From assembly GCF_027587195.1 (NCBI RefSeq), contig NZ_JAPDDP010000043.1:1-64000 (forward strand): a DNA stretch of 64,000 nt, written 5' to 3'. The translations under genes were made by a program, and so were the position numbers. This document shows positions 6,668 to 58,647 of the stretch, piece by piece. Source of the stretch: Solirubrobacter phytolaccae. Its GTDB lineage: Bacteria; Actinomycetota; Thermoleophilia; Solirubrobacterales; Solirubrobacteraceae. The notes under the pieces are model-generated. The model saw only the letters and a list, made by a program, of their open reading frames with translations, ran no database searches and was not told where the DNA came from. How positions within the stretch are numbered: position 1 is the first letter of the stretch; every line of letters begins with the position of its first letter.

Positions 6668-7447
6668 CTACTTGCGGGAGTCGTCCACGTCGACGCGCTC
6701 GGAGCGGACCGTGTCGGACACGGTCTTCTCCTCCGTCGTGACGTCCTTGTCGAGGCGCACGCGCTCCTTGGCGACGGCCTGCTTGTCGACGACGACCTCC
6801 TCCTCGTGGAGCACGACCTCGTGCTCCTCCTCGGAGATGGCCGGGCCGGCGTTGGCGTCGCCGCGGTTGGCGTCGGTGATCGGCTCGCGCTCGAGGCGGA
6901 CCTCTTCGCGACGGACGGGGACGGTCTTCGTGACCTCTTCCTCGACCACGTACTTCTTCAGGCGCACCTTGCCGGCTTCGCGCTCGGTGGTGCCGACGCG
7001 CAGCTCCTCCTCGGAGCGGGTCATCGCCTCGTCGGTGTTCGGGCCGCTCGTGTCCTGGCCCGGGCCGCCGCGCTCGTCGGTCGTCGTCGAGCGTCCGCTG
7101 CCGGAGGTGCTCACGCCCGCATCGCCGTCGTTGCCGCCGCGACCGTAGTGGCGGTAGAGCGCGTCCTCCTCCTGCGAGGAGAGCGCGCCGTCGGGATCGA
7201 CCTTCGGGGCATCCTTGACGGTGGCCTTCTCGAACGGGACGCTGACGCCGTTCTCGTTGGCCGTGGCGTCCTGGATCGGGACGAAGGACTGCTTGGTGCC
7301 GAACATGCCGGTGGTCACGAGGGCCCACTCGGGCGCGTCGCTGTCGGTGTCGAGGTAGATCTCCTCGATCTTGCCGATCTTGTCGCCGCTCGAGTCGAGC
7401 AGATCCTGGCCGCGCCAGCTGAGGATGTCCTGGGTGGTGGTGGCCAT
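6668..7447 (-). CDS. PRC-barrel and DUF2382 domain stress protein
   Basis: The 259-residue protein has an N-terminal PRC-barrel (residues about 8-75, LSWRGQDLLDSSGDKIGKIEEIYLD), a low-complexity Gly/Ser/Thr linker (about 100-140), and a C-terminal DUF2382 domain of alternating Glu/Val/Arg strands (about 148-255, KYVVEEEVTKTVPVRREEVRLER). The domain pair is common in actinobacteria and cyanobacteria and is often linked to desiccation or general stress; its biochemical role is not established. The start is fixed by GGAGG seven bases before the ATG at 7447. A longer in-frame extension overlaps the upstream gene and has no coding character. The gene follows the small membrane protein gene by 23 bases, so they are probably co-transcribed. 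Confidence 0.9.
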   Translation of the reverse strand: MATTTQDILSWRGQDLLDSSGDKIGKIEEIYLDTDSDAPEWALVTTGMFGTKQSFVPIQDATANENGVSVPFEKATVKDAPKVDPDGALSSQEEDALYRHYGRGGNDGDAGVSTSGSGRSTTTDERGGPGQDTSGPNTDEAMTRSEEELRVGTTEREAGKVRLKKYVVEEEVTKTVPVRREEVRLEREPITDANRGDANAGPAISEEEHEVVLHEEEVVVDKQAVAKERVRLDKDVTTEEKTVSDTVRSERVDVDDSRK

Positions 7448-7470
7448 GGTGGCCTCCTCTGTGTTGTGGG

Positions 7471-8076
7471 TCACGCCAGGCCGACCTTGTCGACCTTGCG
7501 ATGGAAATGGGTGCCGGCCTTGCCGCCGGCGAACGCGGCCAGCAACGTGCCCAGCAGGACCGCGGCGAGCGCGATCAAACCGGCGGTGGTCAGGGAGCCC
7601 TCGCCTACGGGGATGCGCGGGAGGTTGAGGTCCGAGAGCACGTTGTACTCGGCGCCGAAGAGCGCGCCGGCGACCGCCAGCGCGACCGTGACGACAAGAC
7701 CGATGAGCCACACGCCGAGTCCCTGGCGCGGGCCGTTGAAACGGGCCATGCGGCCGGCGACATAGCCGCCGCAGTAGTACGCGGCCAGCAGGATCACGAG
7801 CAGCAGCACGCCACCGACGATCCCGATCGTGGTCGCGTTGTCGGACGCGTCGGCGGTGTCCGCCGACGTGAGGCCGACGGCCGCGCCGGTCGCCGCGACC
7901 AGGGCGAGCAGCAACGTGGCGAAGCCGACCGCGACGAGCCAGCCGAAGCAGTCCGCGCCCCACGAGAAGCCGCCGAACTCCTCACGCTGCTGCTGGACGA
8001 CGTTCTTGCGCGTCGGCCGGGCGTTGGGCGTGTCGCTCTCGGCGACGGCGCCCTTGCGGGTGTCGATCGAAGCCAT
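7471..8076 (-). CDS. Small four-helix-type membrane protein, unknown function
   Basis: The 201-residue protein has a polar cytoplasmic N-terminus (about 35 residues, RPTRKNVVQQQREEFGG), then about four hydrophobic helices at roughly 40-70, 84-105, 120-145 and 160-185. It ends with a short basic tail (GGKAGTHFHRKVDKVGLA). A YYCGGYVAGRMARFNGPRQG segment after the second helix is typical of small actinobacterial membrane proteins of the TIGR04086-like kind, but I do not recognise a defined function. It sits two bases downstream of the TM-helix channel-like gene and 23 bases upstream of the PRC-barrel gene. A role in envelope stress is inference from neighbours. Confidence 0.85.
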   Translation of the reverse strand: MASIDTRKGAVAESDTPNARPTRKNVVQQQREEFGGFSWGADCFGWLVAVGFATLLLALVAATGAAVGLTSADTADASDNATTIGIVGGVLLLVILLAAYYCGGYVAGRMARFNGPRQGLGVWLIGLVVTVALAVAGALFGAEYNVLSDLNLPRIPVGEGSLTTAGLIALAAVLLGTLLAAFAGGKAGTHFHRKVDKVGLA

Positions 8077-8078
8077 GG

Positions 8079-8882
8079 TCAGACCGCCGGCGCGACGGCC
8101 GCGGGGCCGTTGCCGTCGGCGCGACGAGCGGCTTCGTCCTTGACGCGGCTCGCGTCGTCCTGGGCGCGCTCCTTGCCCACGCGCATGTCGTGCTTGACCT
8201 GGCCGCGCTGCTCCTGGCCCTTGTCGTAGGCGTCGGCGAGCATGCGGCCGGCAACCTCGCGGCCGCCGAGGCCGAACGCGAGCGCCATCGCGAGGAAGAC
8301 GCCGCCGATGAGCGCGGCGTAGGTGATCGTGACGATCTCCGACGCGATCTCGAGCTGGTTGAGGATCATGAACGTGGCGATCGCCATGACCAGCACGGGG
8401 ACGACCGACCCGACGACCTTGCCGGTGGGCGTGTCGCCCATCGTGCGGGCGACGAGCCCGCCGACGGCCGCGGCGATGACGCCGGCCACGACGAAGATCA
8501 GGATCGCGGCGACGACGTTCGGCAGGTACGCCGCGATCGTGGCGACGAAGTCCGTCAACGCGCCGATCCCGAGCTGCGATACCGCGATCGAGATGACGCC
8601 GAGGAAGATGAACCAGAACGCGATCGCGGCGATCACGCGGCTCGGCTTCAGGTCAGGTGCGACCTTGTTCACGTACTGCCCGGTTGAACCGTTGTGCAGG
8701 GCGCGGTCGAGGCCGACGCTGTCCAGGACCTTGGTCAGAAGGCCCTTGACGACGCGGGCGACGATGAAGCCGATGCCGAGGATCAGCAGGAAGCCGAGCA
8801 GCCGCGGCAGAAAGCCGACGAGGCTGTCGAGGCCCTGCTGGATCGAGTCGCTGACCTGAACGGCAGCGGTGAGCGTGGACAT
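8079..8882 (-). CDS. Mechanosensitive-channel-related TM-helix repeat protein
   Basis: The 267-residue protein has an N-terminal segment (VSDSIQQGLDSLVGFLPRLLGFLLILGIGFIVARVV) followed by about four more helices in two repeats of the conserved TM helix found in small MscS-related proteins. A conserved YLPNVVAAILIFVVAGVIAAAVGGLVA and an AFGLGGREVAGRMLADAYDKG pore-like segment stand near residues 135 and 210. The C-terminus is charged and probably cytoplasmic. It lacks the long beta and alpha-beta vestibule of full MscS channels, so a tension-gated pore role is only suggested. The ATG at 8882 was chosen because AGAGGGA lies just upstream and the hydrophobic repeat begins there. It is the first gene of the leftward group ending at BrkB. 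Confidence 0.85.
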   Translation of the reverse strand: MSTLTAAVQVSDSIQQGLDSLVGFLPRLLGFLLILGIGFIVARVVKGLLTKVLDSVGLDRALHNGSTGQYVNKVAPDLKPSRVIAAIAFWFIFLGVISIAVSQLGIGALTDFVATIAAYLPNVVAAILIFVVAGVIAAAVGGLVARTMGDTPTGKVVGSVVPVLVMAIATFMILNQLEIASEIVTITYAALIGGVFLAMALAFGLGGREVAGRMLADAYDKGQEQRGQVKHDMRVGKERAQDDASRVKDEAARRADGNGPAAVAPAV

Positions 8883-8985: not shown

Positions 8986-9034
8986 TCTGACACCAGAAGC
9001 AGCATCTGCAACAACGCGTCACGTTTAGTCGCAG

Positions 9035-9048
9035 CTCTCCCGGGAGAG
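9035..9048. promoter_or_regulatory. 14-bp perfect palindrome CTCTCCCGGGAGAG, candidate TetR-type operator
   Basis: The sequence reads the same on both strands over 14 bases and ends 12 bases before the ATG of the gene encoding a TetR-type HTH. TetR-family proteins usually bind palindromes next to their own genes, so autoregulation is plausible. It also overlaps the untranslated leader, so an RNA hairpin effect is an alternative. Confidence 0.4.
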
Positions 9049-9060
9049 AATGCTGAGGAG

Positions 9061-10452
9061 ATGCGCACCGATGCCGCCAACAACGCGGAGCGGGTCCTGC
9101 AGAGCACGATCACGCTGCTGCGGACCGAGCCCGAGGCCAGCCTGGAGGAGATCGCGGCCGCCGCGGGGGTCTCGCGCGCCACGGTCTACCGCCGCTTCGG
9201 GTCCCGCGCGGAGCTGGTCGACACGGCACGCCGCCGCGCGGCCGAGAGCGCCGACGCCAACCAGACCGACGCGCTGCGCCCGCCTGGGGAGCTCGCCGGC
9301 GGCCCCACCCCGCTCGACGTCACCGAGGTCCTCAACAAGGTCCCGCCACACTTGCTCGGCGACCAGATCGTCTCGGAGGCCCAGCGGCTCGCGGGCGTCA
9401 CGTCCGTCGCCCTGTACCTGATCGACCTCGAAGGCACGCACCTGCTGCGGCTGGCGGGCTCGGAGGAGTTCCCGGAGACGCTCGGCCTGCCACTCGCGGT
9501 CGGTCCGGAGCTCCCACGCGAAGGGTTGCTGGCGCTGCGCCGGCGGATCGCGGACGAGCTGCCGGGCAGCGTGCTGGCCCCGCTGTCCCTGCGCGGCCGG
9601 ACGCTCGGGATCCTGCTCGCCGTCGACGCGCCCGAGCACGCGCTCGTCGCGCTCGCGCGCCAGGCCGCGGCGTCGCTGGCGCTGGCCGACGACTACACGG
9701 ACGTGTTCGACATCGCGCGTCGGCGCAAAGAGACCAGCCCGGCCGCGGAGGTCCAGCAGAACCTGCTGCCGCCCCGGATCGCGCGCATCACGGGCGCGCT
9801 GGTCGTCGGCAACGTGCTTCCCGGCTACGAGATCGGCGGCGACTGGTTCGACTACGTCGAGAACCGCGACGGCGCCTGGCTCGGCGTGGCCGACAGCATG
9901 GGCTCGGGCACGACCGCGGCCGCCCTCGGCGCCGTGGCGCTCGGCGCGTTCCGGGCCAAGCGCAAGGTCACCGGCGACCTGGAGGCCGCCGTGCTCGCCA
10001 TCCACGAGACCATCCGCGAGGTCGCCATCGAGGGCGCGTTCGTGAACGCCACGATCGCTCGCTGGCACGCGCCGTCGAGCGCGTTCACCTGGATCACGTG
10101 CGGCGAGCAGCGGCCGTTGCTCATCACCGAGCGGGGCGAGCTGCGCGCGATGGAGAGCGAGACCTACGAGAGCCTCGGGCTAGGCCCGGCCAAGCGCTCG
10201 TTCGCGGTGTCACGCCGCCGCCTCGCTCCCGGCGAGCGGCTGCTGCTCGTCTCCGACGGCGTGCTCGACCGGCGCACCCGCGACGGCGGCACGTTCGGCA
10301 CCGACGGCGTGCGCGCGGCCATCCGCGGCGTCGCCGACGCCGCGCCGGCGGAGACCGTCCGCGCGCTCGAGGACGCGATCACGGCCGCCTCGGCCGACCG
10401 CCTCGAGGACGACGCGACGATCGTGGTCCTTGCCCCCACGAGCCGCAGGTGA
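9061..10452 (+). CDS. TetR-type HTH fused to GAF-like region and SpoIIE/PP2C phosphatase
   Basis: The 463-residue protein starts with a TetR N-terminal DNA-binding domain (residues about 8-55; LEEIAAAAGVSRATVYRRFGSRAEL). A GAF-like sensor follows (about 95-220, QRLAGVTSVALYLIDLEGTHLLRLAG). The C-terminus is a SpoIIE/RsbU PP2C phosphatase (about 235-460) with the EVQQNLLPP entry, GGDWFDYVE metal-binding Asp, a DSMGSGTTAAALGA motif, LLLVSDGVLDRR and a terminal EDDATIVVL metal site. RsbU-type phosphatases normally dephosphorylate anti-sigma antagonists in partner-switching pathways. Joining one to a TetR HTH in a single chain is unusual: the TetR ligand domain has been replaced. GAGGAG lies directly before the ATG, and a perfect palindrome lies just upstream. 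The stop overlaps the start of the next small gene (TGATG). Confidence 0.85.
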   Translation: MRTDAANNAERVLQSTITLLRTEPEASLEEIAAAAGVSRATVYRRFGSRAELVDTARRRAAESADANQTDALRPPGELAGGPTPLDVTEVLNKVPPHLLGDQIVSEAQRLAGVTSVALYLIDLEGTHLLRLAGSEEFPETLGLPLAVGPELPREGLLALRRRIADELPGSVLAPLSLRGRTLGILLAVDAPEHALVALARQAAASLALADDYTDVFDIARRRKETSPAAEVQQNLLPPRIARITGALVVGNVLPGYEIGGDWFDYVENRDGAWLGVADSMGSGTTAAALGAVALGAFRAKRKVTGDLEAAVLAIHETIREVAIEGAFVNATIARWHAPSSAFTWITCGEQRPLLITERGELRAMESETYESLGLGPAKRSFAVSRRRLAPGERLLLVSDGVLDRRTRDGGTFGTDGVRAAIRGVADAAPAETVRALEDAITAASADRLEDDATIVVLAPTSRR

Positions 10453-10727: not shown

Positions 10728-11659
10728 CTCCCGTACCGCTGCTCCTGGCGCTCGCGCGAGATCCGCTGCACGTCCCACGCGAGGCCCGTGGCCTCGAGTG
10801 CGCGGATCAGCAGCGCCGACGGGTCGACCTCCCAGACGCGCAGCCCGTGCGCGGCGGAGGTCGGGAACGCGTGGTGGTTGTTGTGCCACGCCTCCCCCAT
10901 CGACGGCAGCGCGAGCCAGGCGAGGTTGCGCGACTCGTCGCTGGTGGCGAACCGGCGGCGCCCGAACGTGTGGCAGAGCGAGTTGATCGAGAACGTGACG
11001 TGGTGCAGCACCGCCATCCGCACCGCGCCGCCCCACAGCAGCCCGCTCAGGCCGGCGGCGAGCGTCCCGCCGAGCGCGAAGCCGAGCGCGAACGGCAGCG
11101 CGAAGCCCAGGATCACCCACAGCAGGAACGTGCGGTCGACGAAGCGCAGCGCGGGATCGGCGAGCAGGTCGGGCGCGTAGCGCGAGCGCTTGCCGCGCTG
11201 GTCGTGCACGAACAGCCAGCCCATGTGCGCGTGCACCAGGCCGGCGAGCGTGCCGCGCCAGCCGCCGCCGTGGCCGACGTGCGGGCTGTGCGGGTCGCCC
11301 TCCTGGTCGCTGAAGGCGTGGTGCTTGCGGTGGTCGGCGACCCACGAGATCACGGGACCTTCGACGGCGCCGGACCCGCACACGGAGAGCGTCACCCGGA
11401 CCCAGCGCTTGGTCTTGAAGCTGCGGTGCGTGAGGTGGCGGTGGTACCCGACGGTGACGCCGAGCGCCGTGGCGACGTAGAACACGACGAACAGCACGAC
11501 GTCGAGGACGCTGAGCATGCTGCCCCACGACTGCCAGACGGCGACGCCCAGCGCCACGAACGGCAGCACCGTGGCGCTCCCGGTGACGATCCGGTCGACC
11601 GTCTCGTGCTTGACGGGCTCGACGTCGTCGCGGGGCGGGCTGATGGTTACGCCGGACAT
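10724..11659 (-). CDS. Membrane acyl-CoA/fatty acid desaturase
   Basis: The 311-residue protein has hydrophobic segments and the three histidine boxes of membrane-bound desaturases in order: HRHLTH, HRKHH and HNNHH. The spacing and the WGSMLSVLDVVLFVVFYVATALGVTVGYHR start match the delta-9 stearoyl-CoA/OLE1-like group. Such enzymes use di-iron, oxygen and an electron donor to introduce a cis double bond into acyl chains. The ATG at 11659 is preceded by GGAGGTG. A longer in-frame start at 11743 lacks such a site. There is no electron-donor gene next to it. The position of the double bond is a family-level guess. Confidence 0.9.
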   Translation of the reverse strand: MSGVTISPPRDDVEPVKHETVDRIVTGSATVLPFVALGVAVWQSWGSMLSVLDVVLFVVFYVATALGVTVGYHRHLTHRSFKTKRWVRVTLSVCGSGAVEGPVISWVADHRKHHAFSDQEGDPHSPHVGHGGGWRGTLAGLVHAHMGWLFVHDQRGKRSRYAPDLLADPALRFVDRTFLLWVILGFALPFALGFALGGTLAAGLSGLLWGGAVRMAVLHHVTFSINSLCHTFGRRRFATSDESRNLAWLALPSMGEAWHNNHHAFPTSAAHGLRVWEVDPSALLIRALEATGLAWDVQRISRERQEQRYGS

Positions 11660-11802
11660 CCGGCACCTCCGAGAACGAGAATCTACGGTTCTTCGGAAGT
11701 CAGACGGCGCAGTCTGGCGACGTCGTCGCGCGATGCCCTCCACCGTCGAGTCTAGACCTCATGCCGGGTCAGCGATCCTCCGGCGACGGTTACTCGTGCA
11801 GG

Positions 11803-11887
11803 GCGCGGGTAGGAACACCCGCGCGGGGTTGGCGCGACCCCGCGATTCGCCACTTCCAGGCCTATAGATCGGAGCCTCGTCTGAGGC
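11803..11887 (+). promoter_or_regulatory. Leader region with overlapping alternative hairpins before GGDEF-EAL gene
   Basis: Two perfect 8-bp stems share bases. GCGCGGGT (11803-11810) pairs with ACCCGCGC (11817-11824) around a 6-base loop. CGCGGGGT (11822-11829) pairs with ACCCCGCG (11837-11844) around a 7-base loop. Because 11822-11824 belong to both, only one can form at a time. A third stem GCCTC/GAGGC (11874-11878 with 11883-11887) lies close to the likely GTG start at 11902. This could be an attenuator-like leader, but high GC makes chance stems common, and the segment could be an N-terminal extension of the protein if the ATG at 11761 is used. Confidence 0.3.
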
Positions 11888-11901
11888 CTTCTCCCGGCGG
11901 C

Positions 11902-13650
11902 GTGCTCATCCGCGCCGAGCACGCCGCAATCGAGCACGACCTCGACCGGCTGCCGTCCCCCCAGGCGACGGTCGACGGCATGGCCTTGACGCGGTTGACC
12001 CGGCTGGCCGGGAACCTGCTCGGCGTTCCGGTGCAGCTCGTGTCGCGGCTCGTGACCGTCGACACCGCCGAGCCGACGTACTCGAGCCATCTGTGCGCCC
12101 ACGTGGTCGAGTCCGGTGCGCCGCTGATCGTCGAGGACAGCCGCCGCTCGCCGCTCGCCGCGATCCGGGCGGCCAAGCCCAACGCGTACGCCGGGCTGCC
12201 GCTGACGCTGCGCGACGGGCACACGGTCGGCGCGCTGTGCGCGAGCGACAGCACCCCGCGGGCCTGGTCGTCCGCCGACCTGGAGGTGCTGGGCGACCTC
12301 GCGGCCGTCGCGGTCGACATGCTGCAGACCCGCCACGCCGACCGCGCCCGCGAGGGACGCGACGCCCTGACCGGCCTGCCCAGCCGGTCGCTGTTCGCCG
12401 AGCTCACGCGGAACGCGCTGGCCGAGACCGCGCGCACGCACGTCACGGGCGCGATGCTGGCCGTGGGGCTCGACGGCTTCCGGCTCGTCAACGACGCGTT
12501 CGGGCACGACACCGGCGACGCCGTGCTGGTCGCCGTCGCCCAGCGCCTGGCCGCCGGGCTGCGCGGCGAGGGCGCCGTGTGCCGTGTCGGCGGCGACGAG
12601 TTCCTGCTGCTGTGCGAAGGCCTGGACGACGATGCCGACGGCGCCCGGCTTGCAGAGCGCGTGCACCACGAGCTCACCAGCGTCCCGATCGCGGCCGGCG
12701 GGGACGCGATCCTGATCCGCGCGACGGTCGGCGTCGCGCTCGCCGACACGCCCATCCCCGCCGAGCAGCTGATCGACGCCGCGCTCGAGGCGCTCATCCG
12801 CCGCAAGGCCGGAGCCCTCACCGCGACCGGCGCTCCCGACCCCGAGCGGCGCGGGCGCGCCGCGGCGCGGCTGCGGGTCCACCACGCGCTGGCCGGCGCC
12901 CACGAGCGCGGCGAGTTCCACCTCGCCTACCAGCCGCTGTTCGACATCCGCACCGGCGAGCTCGCCAGCCTCGAGGCGCTGCTGCGCTGGACGCACCCGG
13001 ACCTGGGCCGGATCGCCCCCGACGACTTCGTCCCCGCCGCCGAGCGCTCCGGCGCGATCGTGGCGATCGGCGAGTGGACGATCGCCCAGGCCGCCCGCGA
13101 CCTCGCCCGCTGGCGCGCGAACCCGGCGACGCGTGAGCTGACCGTCGCGGTCAACCTCGCCCCCACCCAGCTGCGCACCGCCGGCCTGCCCGGCGTCGTG
13201 CGCGAGGCGCTGGAGGACAACGGGCTGCCCGGCGGCGCGCTCACCCTCGAGATCACCGAGCGCGTCCTGCTCGACGACCGCTCCGGCTACGCCCGCGCGA
13301 TGCACCGGCTGCGTGACCTCGGCGCCCGGATCGCGCTCGACGACTTCGGCACCGGCTACTCCGCGCTCGGCTACCTCACGAGCTTCCCGTTCGACACGAT
13401 CAAGCTCGACCGCTCGTTCGTGGCGGCCCTCGACGGCGATCCGCGCGCGGAGGCGCTCGTCGAGGCGATCACGACGATGGCCACCAAGCTCGGCCTGAGC
13501 ACCGTCGCCGAAGGCGTCGAGACCGCCGCGCAGCTCGAGTGCGTCGCGCAGCTCGGCTGCGACCTCGCGCAGGGCTATCACCTCGCCCGCCCGCTCACGG
13601 CGACCGCCCTCGACGAGCGCGCGAGCTTCCGGCCCGGCGCGACCCGCTGA
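11902..13650 (+). CDS. GAF-GGDEF-EAL cyclic-di-GMP turnover protein
   Basis: The 582-residue protein carries a GAF domain (about 10-145, HLCAHVVESGAPLIVEDSR), a GGDEF domain opened by DALTGLPSR with the active-site motif G230-G231-D232-E233-F234, and an EAL domain with E358-A359-L360, DDFGTGYSAL and KLDRSF. Both catalytic motifs are intact, so it could both make and break cyclic-di-GMP; which activity dominates cannot be told. No transmembrane segment is seen, so it is cytoplasmic. The start is uncertain. An ATG at 11761 gives 47 more residues of low coding character, so I prefer the GTG at 11902. The desaturase is divergent. The HD-GYP protein at 16675 is a second cyclic-di-GMP enzyme nearby. 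Confidence 0.9.
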   Translation: MLIRAEHAAIEHDLDRLPSPQATVDGMALTRLTRLAGNLLGVPVQLVSRLVTVDTAEPTYSSHLCAHVVESGAPLIVEDSRRSPLAAIRAAKPNAYAGLPLTLRDGHTVGALCASDSTPRAWSSADLEVLGDLAAVAVDMLQTRHADRAREGRDALTGLPSRSLFAELTRNALAETARTHVTGAMLAVGLDGFRLVNDAFGHDTGDAVLVAVAQRLAAGLRGEGAVCRVGGDEFLLLCEGLDDDADGARLAERVHHELTSVPIAAGGDAILIRATVGVALADTPIPAEQLIDAALEALIRRKAGALTATGAPDPERRGRAAARLRVHHALAGAHERGEFHLAYQPLFDIRTGELASLEALLRWTHPDLGRIAPDDFVPAAERSGAIVAIGEWTIAQAARDLARWRANPATRELTVAVNLAPTQLRTAGLPGVVREALEDNGLPGGALTLEITERVLLDDRSGYARAMHRLRDLGARIALDDFGTGYSALGYLTSFPFDTIKLDRSFVAALDGDPRAEALVEAITTMATKLGLSTVAEGVETAAQLECVAQLGCDLAQGYHLARPLTATALDERASFRPGATR

Positions 13651-55055: not shown

Positions 55056-56194
55056 CGCCCGTCGACGAGGCGCTCCTGCGCGAGCTCACGCCCGCGGTGA
55101 TCGGCGTCGTGGTCCGCCGCGGCGCCGACTTCGCGGCGGCCGAGGACGCCGTGCAGGAGGCTTTGGTCGAGGCCGTGCGCGTGTGGCCGGACGACCCGCC
55201 GCAGGACGCCAAGGGCTGGCTCGTCACCGTGGCCTGGCGCAAGTTCCTGGACGCCGTCCGGGCGGACAGCGCGCGGCGGGCACGGGAGGAGCGCGTCGAC
55301 GCCGAGCCCACCCCGGCCGCGGGTGAGCTCGTGGACGACACGCTCCAGGTCTACTTCCTGTGCGCGCATCCGTCGCTCACGCCGGCCTCCGCGGTCGCGC
55401 TGACCCTGCGCGCGGTCGGCGGGCTCACGACCCGGCAGATCGCGCAGGCCTACCTGGTGCCGGAGGCGACCATGGCCCAGCGCATCAGCCGGGCCAAGCG
55501 CACCGTGGCCGACGTGCGCTTCACGCAGGCCGGTGACCTGGGAACGGTGCTGCGCGTGCTCTACCTCGTGTTCAACGAGGGCTACTCGGGCGACGTGGAC
55601 CTCGCCGCCGAGGCGATCCGGCTCACCCGCCAGCTGGCGGTCCGGACCAAGGACGAGGAGGTCGCGGGCCTGCTCGCGCTGATGCTCCTGCACCACGCCC
55701 GCCGCCCGGCGCGGACCGCCGCCGACGGCCAGCTGGTCACGCTCGCCGAGCAGGACCGCGGCCGCTGGGACACGCGCCTGATCGCCGAGGGCGTCGACAT
55801 CCTCCAGGCCGCGCTCGCCCGCGACCGGCTCGGCGAGTTCCAGGCCCAGGCGGCGATCGCCGCGCTCCACGCCGACGCCCAGACCGCCGCGGAGACCGAC
55901 TGGCCGCAGATCGTCGAGTGGTACGACGAGCTGGTCCGGCTGACCGACAGCCCGGTGGCGCGCCTAAACCGTGCCGTCGCGGTCGGTGAGGCGGAGAGCC
56001 CGCAGGCCGGCCTGAAGGCCCTCACCGCGCTCGACCCGGACCTGCCGCGCTACGCCGCGGTCGGCGCCTACCTGCACGAGCGCGCCGGCGATCTCGCGAC
56101 CGCCGCGCGGCTGTACGCCGAAGCCGCCCGCGCCGCGCCCAGCGTCCCCGAGCGCGACCACCTCACCCGCCAGGTCGCCCGGCTCCGACGCTAA
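55052..56194 (+). CDS. ECF42-group RNA polymerase sigma factor
   Basis: The 380-residue protein has sigma region 2 (GADFAAAEDAVQEALVEAVRVWPDDPPQDAKGWLVTVAWRKFLDAVRADSARR, residues about 25-80) and region 4 (VALTLRAVGGLTTRQIAQAYLVPEATMAQRISRAKRTVA, about 110-150). The long C-terminal extension (DUF6596-like: VLYLVFNEGYSG...LARDRLGEFQAQAAIAALHADAQTAAETDWPQIVEWYDEL..., tetratricopeptide-like) marks the ECF42 group, which has no classical anti-sigma factor. It would direct transcription of its own stress regulon; the YCII gene just before is its usual partner. Its GTG start is coupled to the YCII stop. Its end is convergent with the SpoIIE protein and shares four bases. Confidence 0.92.
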   Translation: MTPVDEALLRELTPAVIGVVVRRGADFAAAEDAVQEALVEAVRVWPDDPPQDAKGWLVTVAWRKFLDAVRADSARRAREERVDAEPTPAAGELVDDTLQVYFLCAHPSLTPASAVALTLRAVGGLTTRQIAQAYLVPEATMAQRISRAKRTVADVRFTQAGDLGTVLRVLYLVFNEGYSGDVDLAAEAIRLTRQLAVRTKDEEVAGLLALMLLHHARRPARTAADGQLVTLAEQDRGRWDTRLIAEGVDILQAALARDRLGEFQAQAAIAALHADAQTAAETDWPQIVEWYDELVRLTDSPVARLNRAVAVGEAESPQAGLKALTALDPDLPRYAAVGAYLHERAGDLATAARLYAEAARAAPSVPERDHLTRQVARLRR

Positions 56195-58647
56195 GCGCCG
56201 TTGCGGTCGATCTCGAACCAGACGCACAGGTCGGTGCCGCCGTCCATCCCCCAGCGGCTGCTGAGCTGATCGACGAGCAGCAGGCCGAACCCGCCCGGCT
56301 CGTCGACCGCCGACGGCGTGCGCGGCTCGAACGCCCCACCGCGGCTGGAGACCTCGGCGCGCAGCTGCTGGTCGGCCGCGGCGACGTGCACGAGCACCCG
56401 CTCGCCCGCGTCCGCGGCGCCGCCGTGCACGACCGCGTTGTTGACCAGCTCGGTGATGACGATCAGCAGGTCGTCGAGCTCCGGGTCGGAGGCGACGCCG
56501 GCCAGCGTGTCGGCGACGACGCCTCGGGCCGCCGCGCTGGCCTGCAGGCCGCCGGGCAGCTCGACCGCCGCCGAGCGCAGCTTCTCGTACGGCCACGCGC
56601 CGACCCGCAGCTGCCGGGCCAGCAGGTCCGTGCGGCGGCGCGGGAACGGCTCGGCCGCGGGACGCCGGCGCGCGCCGTCACGGCGCAGCACGAGCAGCGT
56701 CACGTCGTCCTCGACGTCGGGGTTCGAGAGCGTCCCGGCGAGCACCGCGTCGCACAGCGGGTCGATCGCGTCGGGGGCCGCGATGGTCGCCGCGCCGAGG
56801 CGCTCGAAGCCGACGTCGAGCGTCTCGCGGCGCACCTCGACCAGCCCGTCGGAGTAGAGCACGAGCGTCCCGCCGGGCTCCAGCCACGCGGAACCCTCGG
56901 TGAAGACCGGGTCGTCGAGGGCGCCGAGCGGCGCGCCGGAGGCCTCGCGCAGCCACGTCGCGCCGCCGTCGGCGTCGACGATCAGCGCGGGCGGATGGCC
57001 GGCCTTCGCGTAGTGGACCTCACCCGTGGCGGTGTCCACCGCGACCAGGGAGAGCGTCGTCATGCCGCGGTCGCGCAGGCCCAGCTGGAACGCGTTCAGC
57101 CGCGTGAGCAGCGAGGCCGGCGAGTGGCCGTCCAGCGCGTAGGCCCGCAGCGCGCTGCGCAGCTGCCCCATCGAGGATGCCGCGGCGATCCCGCGCCCGG
57201 CGACGTCGCCGACCACGAGCAGCAGCCGGCCGTCGGGCTGGACGAGCGCGTCGTACCAGTCGCCGCCGACCGAGCCGTCCCCGGCCGCGAAGTAGCGGGC
57301 CGCGCTCGCGTAGCCGGGCACCTCCGGCAGCTTCGCGGGCAGCAGGCTGCGCTGGAGCTCCTCGGCGATGCTCCGCTCGCGCTGGTAGAGCCGGGCGCGC
57401 TGGATGCCGATCGCGGCGCGGTCGGCCGCGAGCCGCAGCAGCCCGCGGTGATCCTCCGAGAATGAGCGCGCGAACAGCGTGCCGACGTGCAGCGCGCCGA
57501 TCGTCTTGCCGTCCACGATCAGCGGGGCCTCGAGCGTCGACGCGACCGCGCCCGCGAGCAGCGACTTGAGCTGGATGCCCTCCTGCTCACCGGTCGGCTC
57601 GGCGGCGGGACGCGACCGCCGGCGCACGGGCGCGGCGGTCTCCCCCGTGCTCGCGGCCTGGTAGACGACCGCGGTGCCGTCGTCCTCCTCGAGCAGGACG
57701 GCGGCGGTGTCGGCCTCGAGCTCCTCGACGATCCGGCGCAGCAGCTCGCGCACGAGCTCGTCGAACGCGAGCGTGCCCAGGGCGGCATCGCTGATGCGCT
57801 GGATCGAGCGCTGGCGCTCCGCCATCCGCTCGGCCGCGACGCGCGCGGCCTGCTCGCGCGTGCGCTCGGCGCGTTCGGCCTCCGCGCGCAGGCGCTCACG
57901 CTGGTCCTGGACCTGCACGACGATCACGTCCGACATGCCGGCGCCCGGGCGGGCGCGCGAGCAGCTGATCAGGCACGGGATCGCCTCGCCGTCGGGACCG
58001 AGCAGACGCGCCTCGAGCTCGACCGTGGCGGCCCCAGCGGCGAGCAGCGCGATCGTCTCCTGCCCGGAGTCGACGTCGTCGGGGTGCAGGAAGTCGTCGA
58101 GCCGGCGGTCGCGCAGGTCGGCCGGCCGGTGGTCGAGCAGCGTCGCGAGCACGCGGTTGGCCTCGTCCACGCGGCCCTCCAGGTCCAGCCGCGCCATGCC
58201 GATCGGCGCGTCCTCGAACGCGGCCCGCAGGATCGCCTCGCTGCGCGCCGCCGCGCGTGACTTGGCGTCCAGCTCCAGGAAGACCGCGACCTTCGAGCGC
58301 AGGATCCCGGGGTCGTAGGGCTTGAAGACGTAGTCCACCGCGCCGGCCGAGTAGCCGCGGAAGACGTGGTGCTGCTCCTTGCTGATCGCGGTGACGAAGA
58401 TGATCGGCAGCGTCCGCGTGCGTGCGCGGCTCTTGATCAGCTCGGCGGTCTCGAACCCGTCCATGCCCGGCATCTGGACGTCGAGCAGCATGACCGCGAA
58501 GTCCTGGTGCAGCAGCGCCTTCAGCGCCTCCTCGCCCGACATCGCCGAGACGAGCCGGCACGGCAGCGGCTCGAGCACCGCGCGCAGCGCGATCAGGTTC
58601 TCCTCGCGGTCGTCGACGAGCAGCACCGCCGGGACGTCAAGCGGCAT
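56191..58647 (-). CDS. Receiver-PAS-GAF-SpoIIE/PP2C-HATPase signalling protein
   Basis: The 818-residue protein has an N-terminal receiver (residues about 7-125; phosphate-accepting Asp56 in LLDVQMPGMDG; VFKPYDP with the switch Lys), a PAS region (about 140-240; AFEDAPIGMARLDLEGRVDEANRV), a GAF domain (about 275-425; TLFARSFSEDHRGLLRL), a SpoIIE/RsbU phosphatase (about 430-670; EELQRSLLPAKLPEVPGY, GGDWYDALVQPDGRLLLVVGDVAGRGIAAA, LVLYSDGLVEVR, DDVTLLVL) and a C-terminal RsbW/SpoIIAB-type HATPase (about 690-815; ELVNNAVVHGG, GGFGLLLVDQLSSRWG). The protein can thus be phosphorylated, dephosphorylate a partner, and act as an anti-sigma-type kinase, all in one chain. It is probably the output of the hybrid kinase operon. 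It overlaps the CheB gene by 11 bases. Confidence 0.92.
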   Translation of the reverse strand: MPLDVPAVLLVDDREENLIALRAVLEPLPCRLVSAMSGEEALKALLHQDFAVMLLDVQMPGMDGFETAELIKSRARTRTLPIIFVTAISKEQHHVFRGYSAGAVDYVFKPYDPGILRSKVAVFLELDAKSRAAARSEAILRAAFEDAPIGMARLDLEGRVDEANRVLATLLDHRPADLRDRRLDDFLHPDDVDSGQETIALLAAGAATVELEARLLGPDGEAIPCLISCSRARPGAGMSDVIVVQVQDQRERLRAEAERAERTREQAARVAAERMAERQRSIQRISDAALGTLAFDELVRELLRRIVEELEADTAAVLLEEDDGTAVVYQAASTGETAAPVRRRSRPAAEPTGEQEGIQLKSLLAGAVASTLEAPLIVDGKTIGALHVGTLFARSFSEDHRGLLRLAADRAAIGIQRARLYQRERSIAEELQRSLLPAKLPEVPGYASAARYFAAGDGSVGGDWYDALVQPDGRLLLVVGDVAGRGIAAASSMGQLRSALRAYALDGHSPASLLTRLNAFQLGLRDRGMTTLSLVAVDTATGEVHYAKAGHPPALIVDADGGATWLREASGAPLGALDDPVFTEGSAWLEPGGTLVLYSDGLVEVRRETLDVGFERLGAATIAAPDAIDPLCDAVLAGTLSNPDVEDDVTLLVLRRDGARRRPAAEPFPRRRTDLLARQLRVGAWPYEKLRSAAVELPGGLQASAAARGVVADTLAGVASDPELDDLLIVITELVNNAVVHGGAADAGERVLVHVAAADQQLRAEVSSRGGAFEPRTPSAVDEPGGFGLLLVDQLSSRWGMDGGTDLCVWFEIDRNGA

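What the first reader, a model, noticed from the sequence alone, without database searches (positions are those of the whole stretch)
9061..10452. TetR DNA-binding domain fused to GAF and SpoIIE phosphatase
Seen: a clean TetR HTH at 8-55, a GAF-like middle and a PP2C phosphatase with metal motifs in one frame. Known: SpoIIE/RsbU phosphatases act in sigma-factor partner switching and normally do not bind DNA. Inference: this protein may couple a ligand to both a promoter and a phosphorylation switch.
Basis: partly seen in the sequence, partly recalled or inferred. Interest (0 to 1): 0.6.

Follow-up and report, generated by a model that had tools for sequence, protein, structure and literature searches.

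The report
DNA-binding stress phosphatase with own operator
A soil bacterium and its relatives make one protein that joins a repressor-type DNA-binding head to a sensor and to a protein phosphatase of the kind that switches on stress responses, and a conserved DNA site beside many of these genes suggests that it acts on a promoter as well as on a phosphorylation switch.

Summary
The fusion is real. The 463-aa ORF at 9061-10452 has a TetR-type HTH (aa 1-69), a GAF-fold domain (95-217) and a SpoIIE/RsbU-type PP2C domain (218-463). It is not a frame error: by hand count, 47 of 63 match rows, in 37 of 121 family genomes, start at query residue 1-2. A quick tree fits one origin; I saw the fusion almost only in Thermoleophilia. 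In relative L012 the site precedes a STAS gene; in one relative an unlinked site lies at BrkB and PRC/DUF2382 genes; in a fusion-less genome the best site abuts an ordinary TetR gene with a similar HTH. Best reading: a one-component regulator that binds its own divergent promoter and dephosphorylates STAS antagonists. DNA binding, phosphatase activity and ligand are untested; about half of the genes lack the full palindrome. My searches of an open-access library found no paper on this fusion. New variant of a known kind.

The parts
9061..10452 (+). TetR HTH - GAF - SpoIIE/PP2C fusion gene, 463 aa
   Evidence: relatives
9061..9267 (+). TetR-type HTH with long fourth helix (aa 1-69)
   Evidence: Pfam TetR_N; fold match to KstR-DNA 5ua2 Z 11.9; recognition-segment residues kept
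9268..9342 (+). Low-confidence linker (aa 70-94); the long relatives carry a further segment and a PAS domain here
   Evidence: pLDDT below 50 at 67-70 and 72-93; PAS_4 above cut-off in 4 of 5 long forms scanned
9343..9711 (+). GAF-fold sensor domain (aa 95-217)
   Evidence: Foldseek/VIA match to DevS GAF-B; Pfam GAF below cut-off
9712..10449 (+). Linker helix and SpoIIE/RsbU-type PP2C domain (aa 218-463)
   Evidence: Pfam SpoIIE 98 bits; 3ke6 Z 21.9; conserved Asp residues
9004..9026 (.). Candidate operator ATCTGCAACAACGCGTCACGTTT, the window's imperfect copy of AAnYGRGACAnnnTGTCYCRnTT
   Evidence: EM motif; leave-one-out score 19.1; the only site scoring 10 or more in the 64 kb window, 20.4 with the full matrix
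8079..8882 (-). MscS-like membrane protein (MS_channel_1st_1), first gene of the divergent gene set
   Evidence: an MS_channel_1st_1 gene is also divergent from the own-genome paralogue (L095) and from the fusion in L001 and L112
7471..8076 (-). Membrane-looking protein without Pfam match, second gene of the divergent set
6668..7474 (-). PRC-barrel/DUF2382 protein; this domain pair is divergent from the fusion in six other neighbourhoods
   Evidence: one of two DUF2382 matches in the own genome
5732..6625 (-). BrkB/YihY membrane protein, end of the divergent set

Best explanation
This is a single-chain signalling protein of the general-stress / partner-switching type. Its TetR HTH binds a palindromic operator in the promoter region that its own gene shares with a divergent envelope/stress (or STAS) gene and so regulates both. 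Its SpoIIE/RsbU-type phosphatase dephosphorylates a STAS anti-anti-sigma factor. The GAF domain carries the signal; dimerisation through the GAF domain and helical linkers would stand in for the missing TetR C-terminal domain. Shown here: the fusion, its conservation, the conserved palindrome in many members, the gene neighbourhood. Inferred: that this HTH binds that palindrome, that the phosphatase is active on STAS proteins, and that a GAF signal coordinates the two.
For: Fusion conserved and, on a quick tree of the GAF-PP2C part, one change between TetR-bearing and TetR-less rows (support 67). Palindromic EM on 44 upstream regions: log-likelihood 139.1 at width 21 against 45.1-53.5 for 6 shuffled sets; in a 25-sequence subset 180.8 at width 25 against 46.1-55.3 for 4 shuffled sets. 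Leave-one-out: 18 of 25 score 12 or more, against 14 of 295 control upstream regions, 10 of the 14 being the same shared intergenic regions read from the divergent gene. Column-permuted matrices find on average 0.4 sites of 15 or more (maximum 6 in 200) in 20 neighbourhoods, the real matrix 14, 12 of them upstream of the fusion. Divergent upstream neighbour in 25 of 27 fusion genes against 64 of 244 other genes. Neighbour families by Pfam. Operator between fusion and STAS gene in L097 and L099 (divergent) and L012 (downstream). Unlinked site at BrkB and PRC/DUF2382 genes in G045. In fusion-less G040 the best of 7 pattern sites, 21.3, lies just upstream of a 193-aa TetR_N gene whose HTH is 52% identical to this one over 52 residues. 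Sigma-70 genes beside fusions in L097, L113 and L114.
Against: No binding or enzyme data. The window's own site is imperfect (leave-one-out 19.1); the six fusion-less genomes reach 16.6-21.3 with their best pattern sites (64 ranked), so genome-wide the window's site does not stand out by itself. Many members lack the full palindrome: 7 of 25 in group B score below 12 leave-one-out, and 18 of 19 in group A score below 12 with the group B matrix; of the 20 neighbourhoods L095-L114, 10 have no site of 15 or more at the fusion. Group A shows an excess of half-sites in other spacings instead. No excess of sites in whole genomes: 16 in G000 against 22 for the reversed pattern; lower than or about equal to the control in all 6 fusion genomes. 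No STAS or sigma gene next to the fusion in the window; ten own-genome STAS-like loci fetched (L140-L149) carry no site of 12 or more. The own genome has 25 SpoIIE matches and 20 matches to the L012 STAS protein, so the substrate is open. That the neighbours are stress genes is partly recall; my one literature search on DUF2382 (listing only) did not settle it.
Confidence: 0.64

Rival explanations
1. Phosphatase only: an RsbU-type phosphatase whose TetR HTH is a captured dimerisation or protein-docking module that no longer binds DNA; the palindrome belongs to another regulator.
For: No TetR C-terminal domain; the window has R where 32 of 33 members have H at position 45; dN/dS is highest in the HTH (0.22); about half of the members lack the full palindrome.
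Against: R39, T41, R44, F46 and R49 are 33/33. The site is also there where the upstream gene is codirectional (L106, 21.4 at 7850), so it is not a mark of the divergent gene alone; the other codirectional case, L109, has none of 15 or more. The same site type abuts an ordinary TetR_N gene with a similar HTH. Of 12 relatives scored without an HTH in the frame, none reaches 12 (best 11.7, L069); one of them, L087, is a cut long form, and the stretches were anchored on the match start, not on a mapped gene start.
Confidence: 0.18
2. DNA-binding regulator with a dead phosphatase: the PP2C domain serves as a dimerisation or signal module and the output is transcription only.
For: The usual His of the DxxGHG motif is not present (DSMGSG here; the usual motif is recalled); one member, L088, has lost D278 and D450.
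Against: The metal-type Asp residues are kept in 32-33 of 33; STAS genes adjoin the fusion in L012, L097 and L099; purifying selection on PP2C.
Confidence: 0.14
3. Frame error or assembly chimera joining two genes.
For: None found for the window gene.
Against: HTH-bearing matches in 37 of 121 family genomes by hand count and in named isolate and MAG contigs; dN/dS well below 1 on both sides of the junction.
Confidence: 0.01
4. The palindrome is a sigma-factor promoter element or terminator-like inverted repeat rather than an operator.
For: It sits about 55-220 nt upstream of the HTH start; in L012 it follows a stop codon.
Against: It is a symmetric 23-bp motif with a fixed 3-bp centre (gap 3: 21 of 44 against a shuffle mean of 4.0), unlike a two-box promoter; no T-run follows it in L012.
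Confidence: 0.06

Closest known systems
RsbU / RsbP / SpoIIE PPM (PP2C) phosphatases of partner switching (e.g. Rv1364c RsbU domain, 3ke6)
   Same: Same catalytic fold and conserved Asp pattern; sensor domain joined to PP2C by a helical linker; STAS or sigma genes near several members.
   Different: Carries an N-terminal TetR-type DNA-binding domain; many of the genes have an operator-like palindrome in a divergent promoter region.
TetR family regulators (e.g. KstR, 5ua2)
   Same: HTH fold and recognition-segment signature; palindromic site in a divergent intergenic region.
   Different: No TetR C-terminal domain recognised; GAF plus phosphatase instead.
IclR-type one-component regulators (HTH + GAF-like domain; 7dqb and 5h1a appear)
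   Same: HTH followed by a GAF-fold effector domain (for IclR recalled).
   Different: TetR-type HTH rather than winged HTH, and an added PP2C output.
Zf-ribbon PP2C proteins named in PMC12088040 (passage seen)
   Same: PP2C with a putative DNA-binding module.
   Different: Different DNA-binding fold; no operator mentioned in that passage.

Membership tests
SpoIIE/RsbU-type PP2C phosphatase (PF07228) | Pfam SpoIIE domain above curated cut-off | tested here: met
   98 bits against 25; 10 of 10 relatives scanned
SpoIIE/RsbU-type PP2C phosphatase (PF07228) | PP2C fold and conserved metal-type Asp residues | tested here: met
   3ke6 Z 21.9, 6k4e Z 21.3; D261, D278, D450, D451 33/33, D399 32/33; L088 is an exception outside that set
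SpoIIE/RsbU-type PP2C phosphatase (PF07228) | Dephosphorylates a STAS anti-anti-sigma factor | not testable with these tools
   Only adjacency of STAS genes in L012, L097, L099, and 3.3 kb away in L104
TetR family regulator | N-terminal TetR HTH | tested here: met
   TetR_N 36.4 bits against 24; 5ua2 Z 11.9, rmsd 1.4, 69 aligned
TetR family regulator | TetR C-terminal ligand-binding/dimerisation domain after the HTH | tested here: not met
   aa 95-217 match GAF folds; no TetR C-terminal family. Long relatives have an extra segment between HTH and PAS that I did not assign
TetR family regulator | Palindromic operator in own, often divergent, promoter region | tested here: inconclusive
   A conserved palindrome by sequence in many but not all members; binding not tested
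Partner-switching module | STAS antagonist, RsbW-like kinase and SigB/F-like sigma factor as partners | tested here: inconclusive
   Own genome: 64 HATPase_c_2 matches, many of them probably histidine kinases, and 20 STAS matches; sigma genes adjoin the fusion only in other genomes; the true partners are unknown
GAF domain | Pfam GAF above cut-off | tested here: not met
   14.9 against 22.4 bits; the fold comparison nevertheless finds GAF
One-component regulator | Input and DNA-binding output in one chain | tested here: inconclusive
   Domain layout fits; neither ligand nor DNA binding is shown

The most novel reading that the evidence does not exclude
An operator-gated phosphatase: the operator DNA is itself an allosteric ligand. 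When the HTH pair sits on the palindrome, the linker geometry holds the PP2C domains in one state; leaving the DNA (on a GAF signal) switches them to the other. The same protein would then set both how much STAS antagonist (or stress operon) is made and whether it is phosphorylated. It would give the coiled-coil-linker model of PPM control (PMC12143880, abstract and passages seen) a DNA input.
Probability: 0.25. Interest if true: 0.85.

Novelty: new variant of a known kind. Interest (0 to 1): 0.62.

Why it matters
SpoIIE/RsbU phosphatases normally act one step away from DNA: they free a sigma factor through STAS and RsbW-like proteins. A conserved version with its own DNA-binding head and an operator-like site would merge two main bacterial ways of switching genes, one-component repressors and sigma-factor partner switching, in one chain. 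The work names a testable operator, a testable set of target genes and, in L012, L097 and L099, a testable substrate gene, in a bacterial class for which my searches found no study of SpoIIE signalling (for Solirubrobacter: no paper).

Tried and rejected
The perfect palindrome CTCTCCCGGGAGAG at 9035-9048 looked like an operator but is absent from L001 and L040: rejected as chance.

Frame error or pseudogene in the window: rejected. Seven of the 47 HTH-bearing rows are marked with one stop inside. In L053, L062, L109, L113 and L114 the stop is at the end of the gene; G048:C409 was not read; in L091 (G012) the frame runs out of homology inside the PP2C domain.

Large regulon: pattern matches in six fusion genomes are not above the reversed-pattern control (16/22, 13/20, 13/21, 12/15, 11/10, 9/12). 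Context of lesser sites: G061:C269 lies upstream of another TetR gene with a TetR_C domain; G000:C4 overlaps an open frame; G059:C1:4665570 lies inside one.

SigB-type promoter (GTTT-N13-17-GGGWW): 1 of 27 fusion genes; 3 of about 25 divergent neighbours against 3 of about 268 others. Weak, post hoc, not used for the verdict.

Groups A and B of upstream regions were chosen by eye after a first look; the 44-sequence run does not depend on that. Left out of the 44: L039, L041, L059 (near copies), L009 and L011 (no usable HTH start in the match), L021-L028 (other SpoIIE proteins), and L109, L113, L114, fetched later; these last three have no site of 15 or more. Leave-one-out started from the matrix trained on all 25 and was then re-estimated without the held-out row. 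Shuffled EM runs had fewer seeds (60 against 150; 25 against 90). In some searches I ranked only part of the listed sites, picked by eye; ranks all 74 and 64.

Fold search with the full model was filled by PP2C rows, hence the second model, of aa 1-217.

Full report
WHAT IS THERE. The frame 9061-10452 (+) reads 463 codons without a stop. Pfam gives TetR_N (26-54, 36.4 bits, cut-off 24) and SpoIIE (270-457, 98 bits, cut-off 25); GAF is below its cut-off (14.9 against 22.4). A model of the full chain has mean pLDDT 68.9; a model of aa 1-217 has 77.4. In the latter, aa 1-69 match TetR regulators, best the KstR-DNA complex 5ua2 (Z 11.9, rmsd 1.4, 69 aligned), and aa 95-216 match GAF domains, e.g. 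DevS GAF-B 2vjw/2vks (Z 10.7, rmsd 3.1-3.2). The C-terminal part matches Rv1364c RsbU-RsbW 3ke6 (Z 21.9, rmsd 3.1, 215 aligned) and other PP2Cs.

IS IT A REAL FUSION. A search of 121 family genomes gives 43 with a match at 1e-30. By hand count of that table, 47 of 63 match rows, in 37 genomes, begin at query residue 1 or 2, i.e. include the HTH; some are cut at contig ends, and one (L091) loses its frame inside PP2C. In a class-wide sample 18 of 199 genomes match at 1e-40, with HTH-bearing rows in four family codes (f1, f2, f3, f6). In a phylum-wide sample 53 of 396 match at 1e-20; every listed row outside the own family starts at residue 48 or later, i.e. GAF-SpoIIE without this HTH. Only up to four candidates per genome were scored there, and a very different TetR-SpoIIE protein would have been missed. 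TetR_N and SpoIIE pass their cut-offs in 10 of 10 relatives scanned. Among 33 aligned fusion proteins R39, T41, R44, F46, R49 and D261, D278, D450, D451 do not vary and D399 varies once; a second set with other subclades keeps R39 in 14 of 14 and the Asp residues except in L088. Window against L001 gives dN/dS 0.22, 0.02, 0.04 and 0.14 for HTH, linker, GAF and PP2C. A quick maximum-likelihood tree of the GAF-PP2C part (59 rows) needs one change between TetR-bearing and TetR-less rows (support 67; long branches flagged), which fits one fusion event but does not prove it. A long form (about 690 aa; L005, L006, L008, L010, L011) has an extra segment after the HTH and a PAS domain (PAS_4 in 4 of 5). 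The window genome also has a paralogue, 52% identical, on contig C55.

THE OPERATOR. I took 230 nt upstream of the HTH start from 44 fusion genes. The spaced word GACA-N3-TGTC (one mismatch allowed) is in 21 of 44, against a shuffle mean of 4.0 (maximum 8 in 30 rounds); no other gap from 0 to 7 exceeds 9 of 44. A palindromic EM finds actGgGACAnnnTGTCcCagt at width 21 with a log-likelihood of 139.1, against 45.1-53.5 in six shuffled sets. In 25 sequences (group B, including the window) the width-25 score is 180.8 against 46.1-55.3. The other 19 (group A) have only a weak palindrome of another shape (70.9 against about 43), and 18 of them score below 12 with the group B matrix, but they hold a strong excess of half-sites GRGACA/TGTCYC: 35 against a shuffle mean of 5.5, maximum 13 in 200; two or more half-sites in 74% of 19 against 1.2% of 253 control upstream regions. 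Their spacings differ. In group B leave-one-out scores reach 12 in 18 of 25; 14 of 295 control upstream regions do so, and 10 of those 14 are the very intergenic regions shared with the fusion gene. In the 20 neighbourhoods L095-L114 there are 14 sites of 15 or more, 12 of them upstream of the fusion, in 10 of the 20 loci; 10 loci have none there. Column-permuted matrices find on average 0.4 such sites (maximum 6 in 200). In the window the only site scoring 10 or more is 9004-9026 (20.4; leave-one-out 19.1). Of 12 relatives scored without an HTH in the frame none reaches 12 (best 11.7); one of them, L087, is a cut long form.

THE NEIGHBOURHOOD. My own gene calls on 27 neighbourhoods put a divergent gene upstream of the fusion in 25; L106 and L109 are codirectional. 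Other genes of the same loci have a divergent upstream neighbour in 64 of 244 cases. The upstream neighbour is MscS-like in 4 (window, L001, L095, L112); PRC/DUF2382 in 6 (L006, L098, L101, L105, L108, L110); DUF3618, BrkB, Holin-X or an unassigned gene that precedes such genes in 6 (L003, L004, L005, L008, L107, L111); MpsC in 3 (L100, L102, L103); STAS in 2 (L097, L099); DUF892 in 1 (L096); an unassigned gene followed by PRC/DUF2382 in 1 (L104). L113 (sulphate permease with a STAS domain) and L114 (doubtful call) are outside this set but have sigma-70 genes downstream of the fusion. That these families are envelope and general-stress genes is my reading, partly from recall. In the window the divergent set 8882-5732 (-) is MscS-like, an unassigned protein, PRC/DUF2382 and BrkB, with gaps of 2, -4 and 42 nt; one of two DUF2382 matches of the genome is here.

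LINK TO PARTNER SWITCHING. In L097 and L099 the operator lies between the fusion and a divergent STAS gene. In L012, the 72%-identical relative, a perfect inverted repeat of the same type (score 23.3) lies between the fusion's stop and a following STAS gene, while no good site lies upstream of that fusion. In G045 an unlinked site (20.7) lies between a BrkB and a PRC/DUF2382 gene, overlapping the longest possible start of the BrkB frame, and another (18.3) precedes a gene set that includes Holin-X and DUF3618. The own genome has 25 SpoIIE matches, 64 HATPase_c_2 matches, many of them probably histidine kinases, and 20 matches to the L012 STAS protein; the ten of these STAS loci fetched carry no site of 12 or more. 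So the substrate in the window's own organism is open.

WHY THE HTH IS THE LIKELY READER OF THE SITE. In five of six fusion-bearing genomes the best of all listed pattern sites is the one at a fusion gene (23.1-26.5; in G000 the paralogue's, with the window's second at 20.4); in G033 it is not (best 17.7). The matrix was trained on those sites, so this is not independent. In six family genomes without a fusion match the best sites score 16.6-21.3 (64 ranked). The highest, in G040, lies a few bases upstream of a 193-aa TetR_N gene (46.3 bits) whose HTH is 52% identical over 52 residues to the window's and has the SRxTVYR segment. Ten TetR-like matches of the own genome without R at position 39 have no site (best 5.6). 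Against this: a TetR with K there (G061:C269) has a similar site (19.7), and the five other fusion-less genomes reach 16.6-19.9 by what I take for chance.

HOW IT MOST LIKELY WORKS. Inferred: a dimer held by GAF and linker helices binds the operator through two HTHs; a signal at the GAF domain changes both operator occupancy and PP2C activity. PMC12143880 (abstract and passages seen) describes activation of PPM phosphatases through coiled-coil linkers and links this to GAF, PAS and receiver sensors; PMC11418112 (abstract and introduction seen) states that such phosphatases act on STAS anti-anti-sigma factors. Whether DNA binding itself gates the phosphatase is the boldest reading that these data leave open.

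PRIOR ART. Searches of the open-access library for TetR with SpoIIE, PP2C, RsbU, one-component, partner switching and Solirubrobacter listed no paper whose title or abstract start describes such a fusion (listings only, plus passages of PMC2887360 and PMC12088040). Subscription papers are mostly not held, so this is not proof of absence. The fusion itself would be visible to anyone scanning domains; what looks new is the conserved operator-like site and its link to stress and STAS genes.

Noticed in passing
window 56191-58647 (-): A second SpoIIE protein in the window: receiver, PAS, GAF, SpoIIE and HATPase_c_2 domains in one 818-aa chain, i.e. phosphatase and RsbW-like domain together.
   Followed up: partly
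window 11902-13650 (+) and L095:10706-12463: A GAF-GGDEF-EAL gene lies downstream of the fusion; a gene of the same BLAST cluster lies near the own-genome paralogue too.
   Followed up: partly
L096:4995-6071 (-): A TetR-less SpoIIE relative sits about 1.2 kb from the fusion gene in G045, with a DUF892 gene between.
   Followed up: partly
L097:10413-10949 (+): A 178-aa sigma-70 protein with region 2 and 3 matches but no region 4 match, beside STAS and Holin-X/DUF3618-type genes.
   Followed up: no
L100, L102, L103 (divergent gene); L104:10343-10756 and 11656-11979: MpsC (PF10057) genes recur next to or near fusion genes.
   Followed up: no
L100:6389 and 6502; L103:8103 and 8217: Two operator-like sites about 113 bp apart in the same divergent intergenic region, as if one per promoter.
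   Followed up: no
L010: A long-form fusion in a MAG labelled Egibacteraceae, outside Thermoleophilia; gene transfer or misbinning not resolved.
   Followed up: no
L136:4568 (G061:C269): A near-perfect GAGACG-N3-CGTCTC palindrome between an SDR-like gene and an ordinary TetR gene (TetR_N and TetR_C_11).
   Followed up: partly
L088 and L091: Two fusion genes look degenerate in the phosphatase: L088 lacks two of the conserved Asp residues, and L091's frame runs out inside the domain.
   Followed up: no
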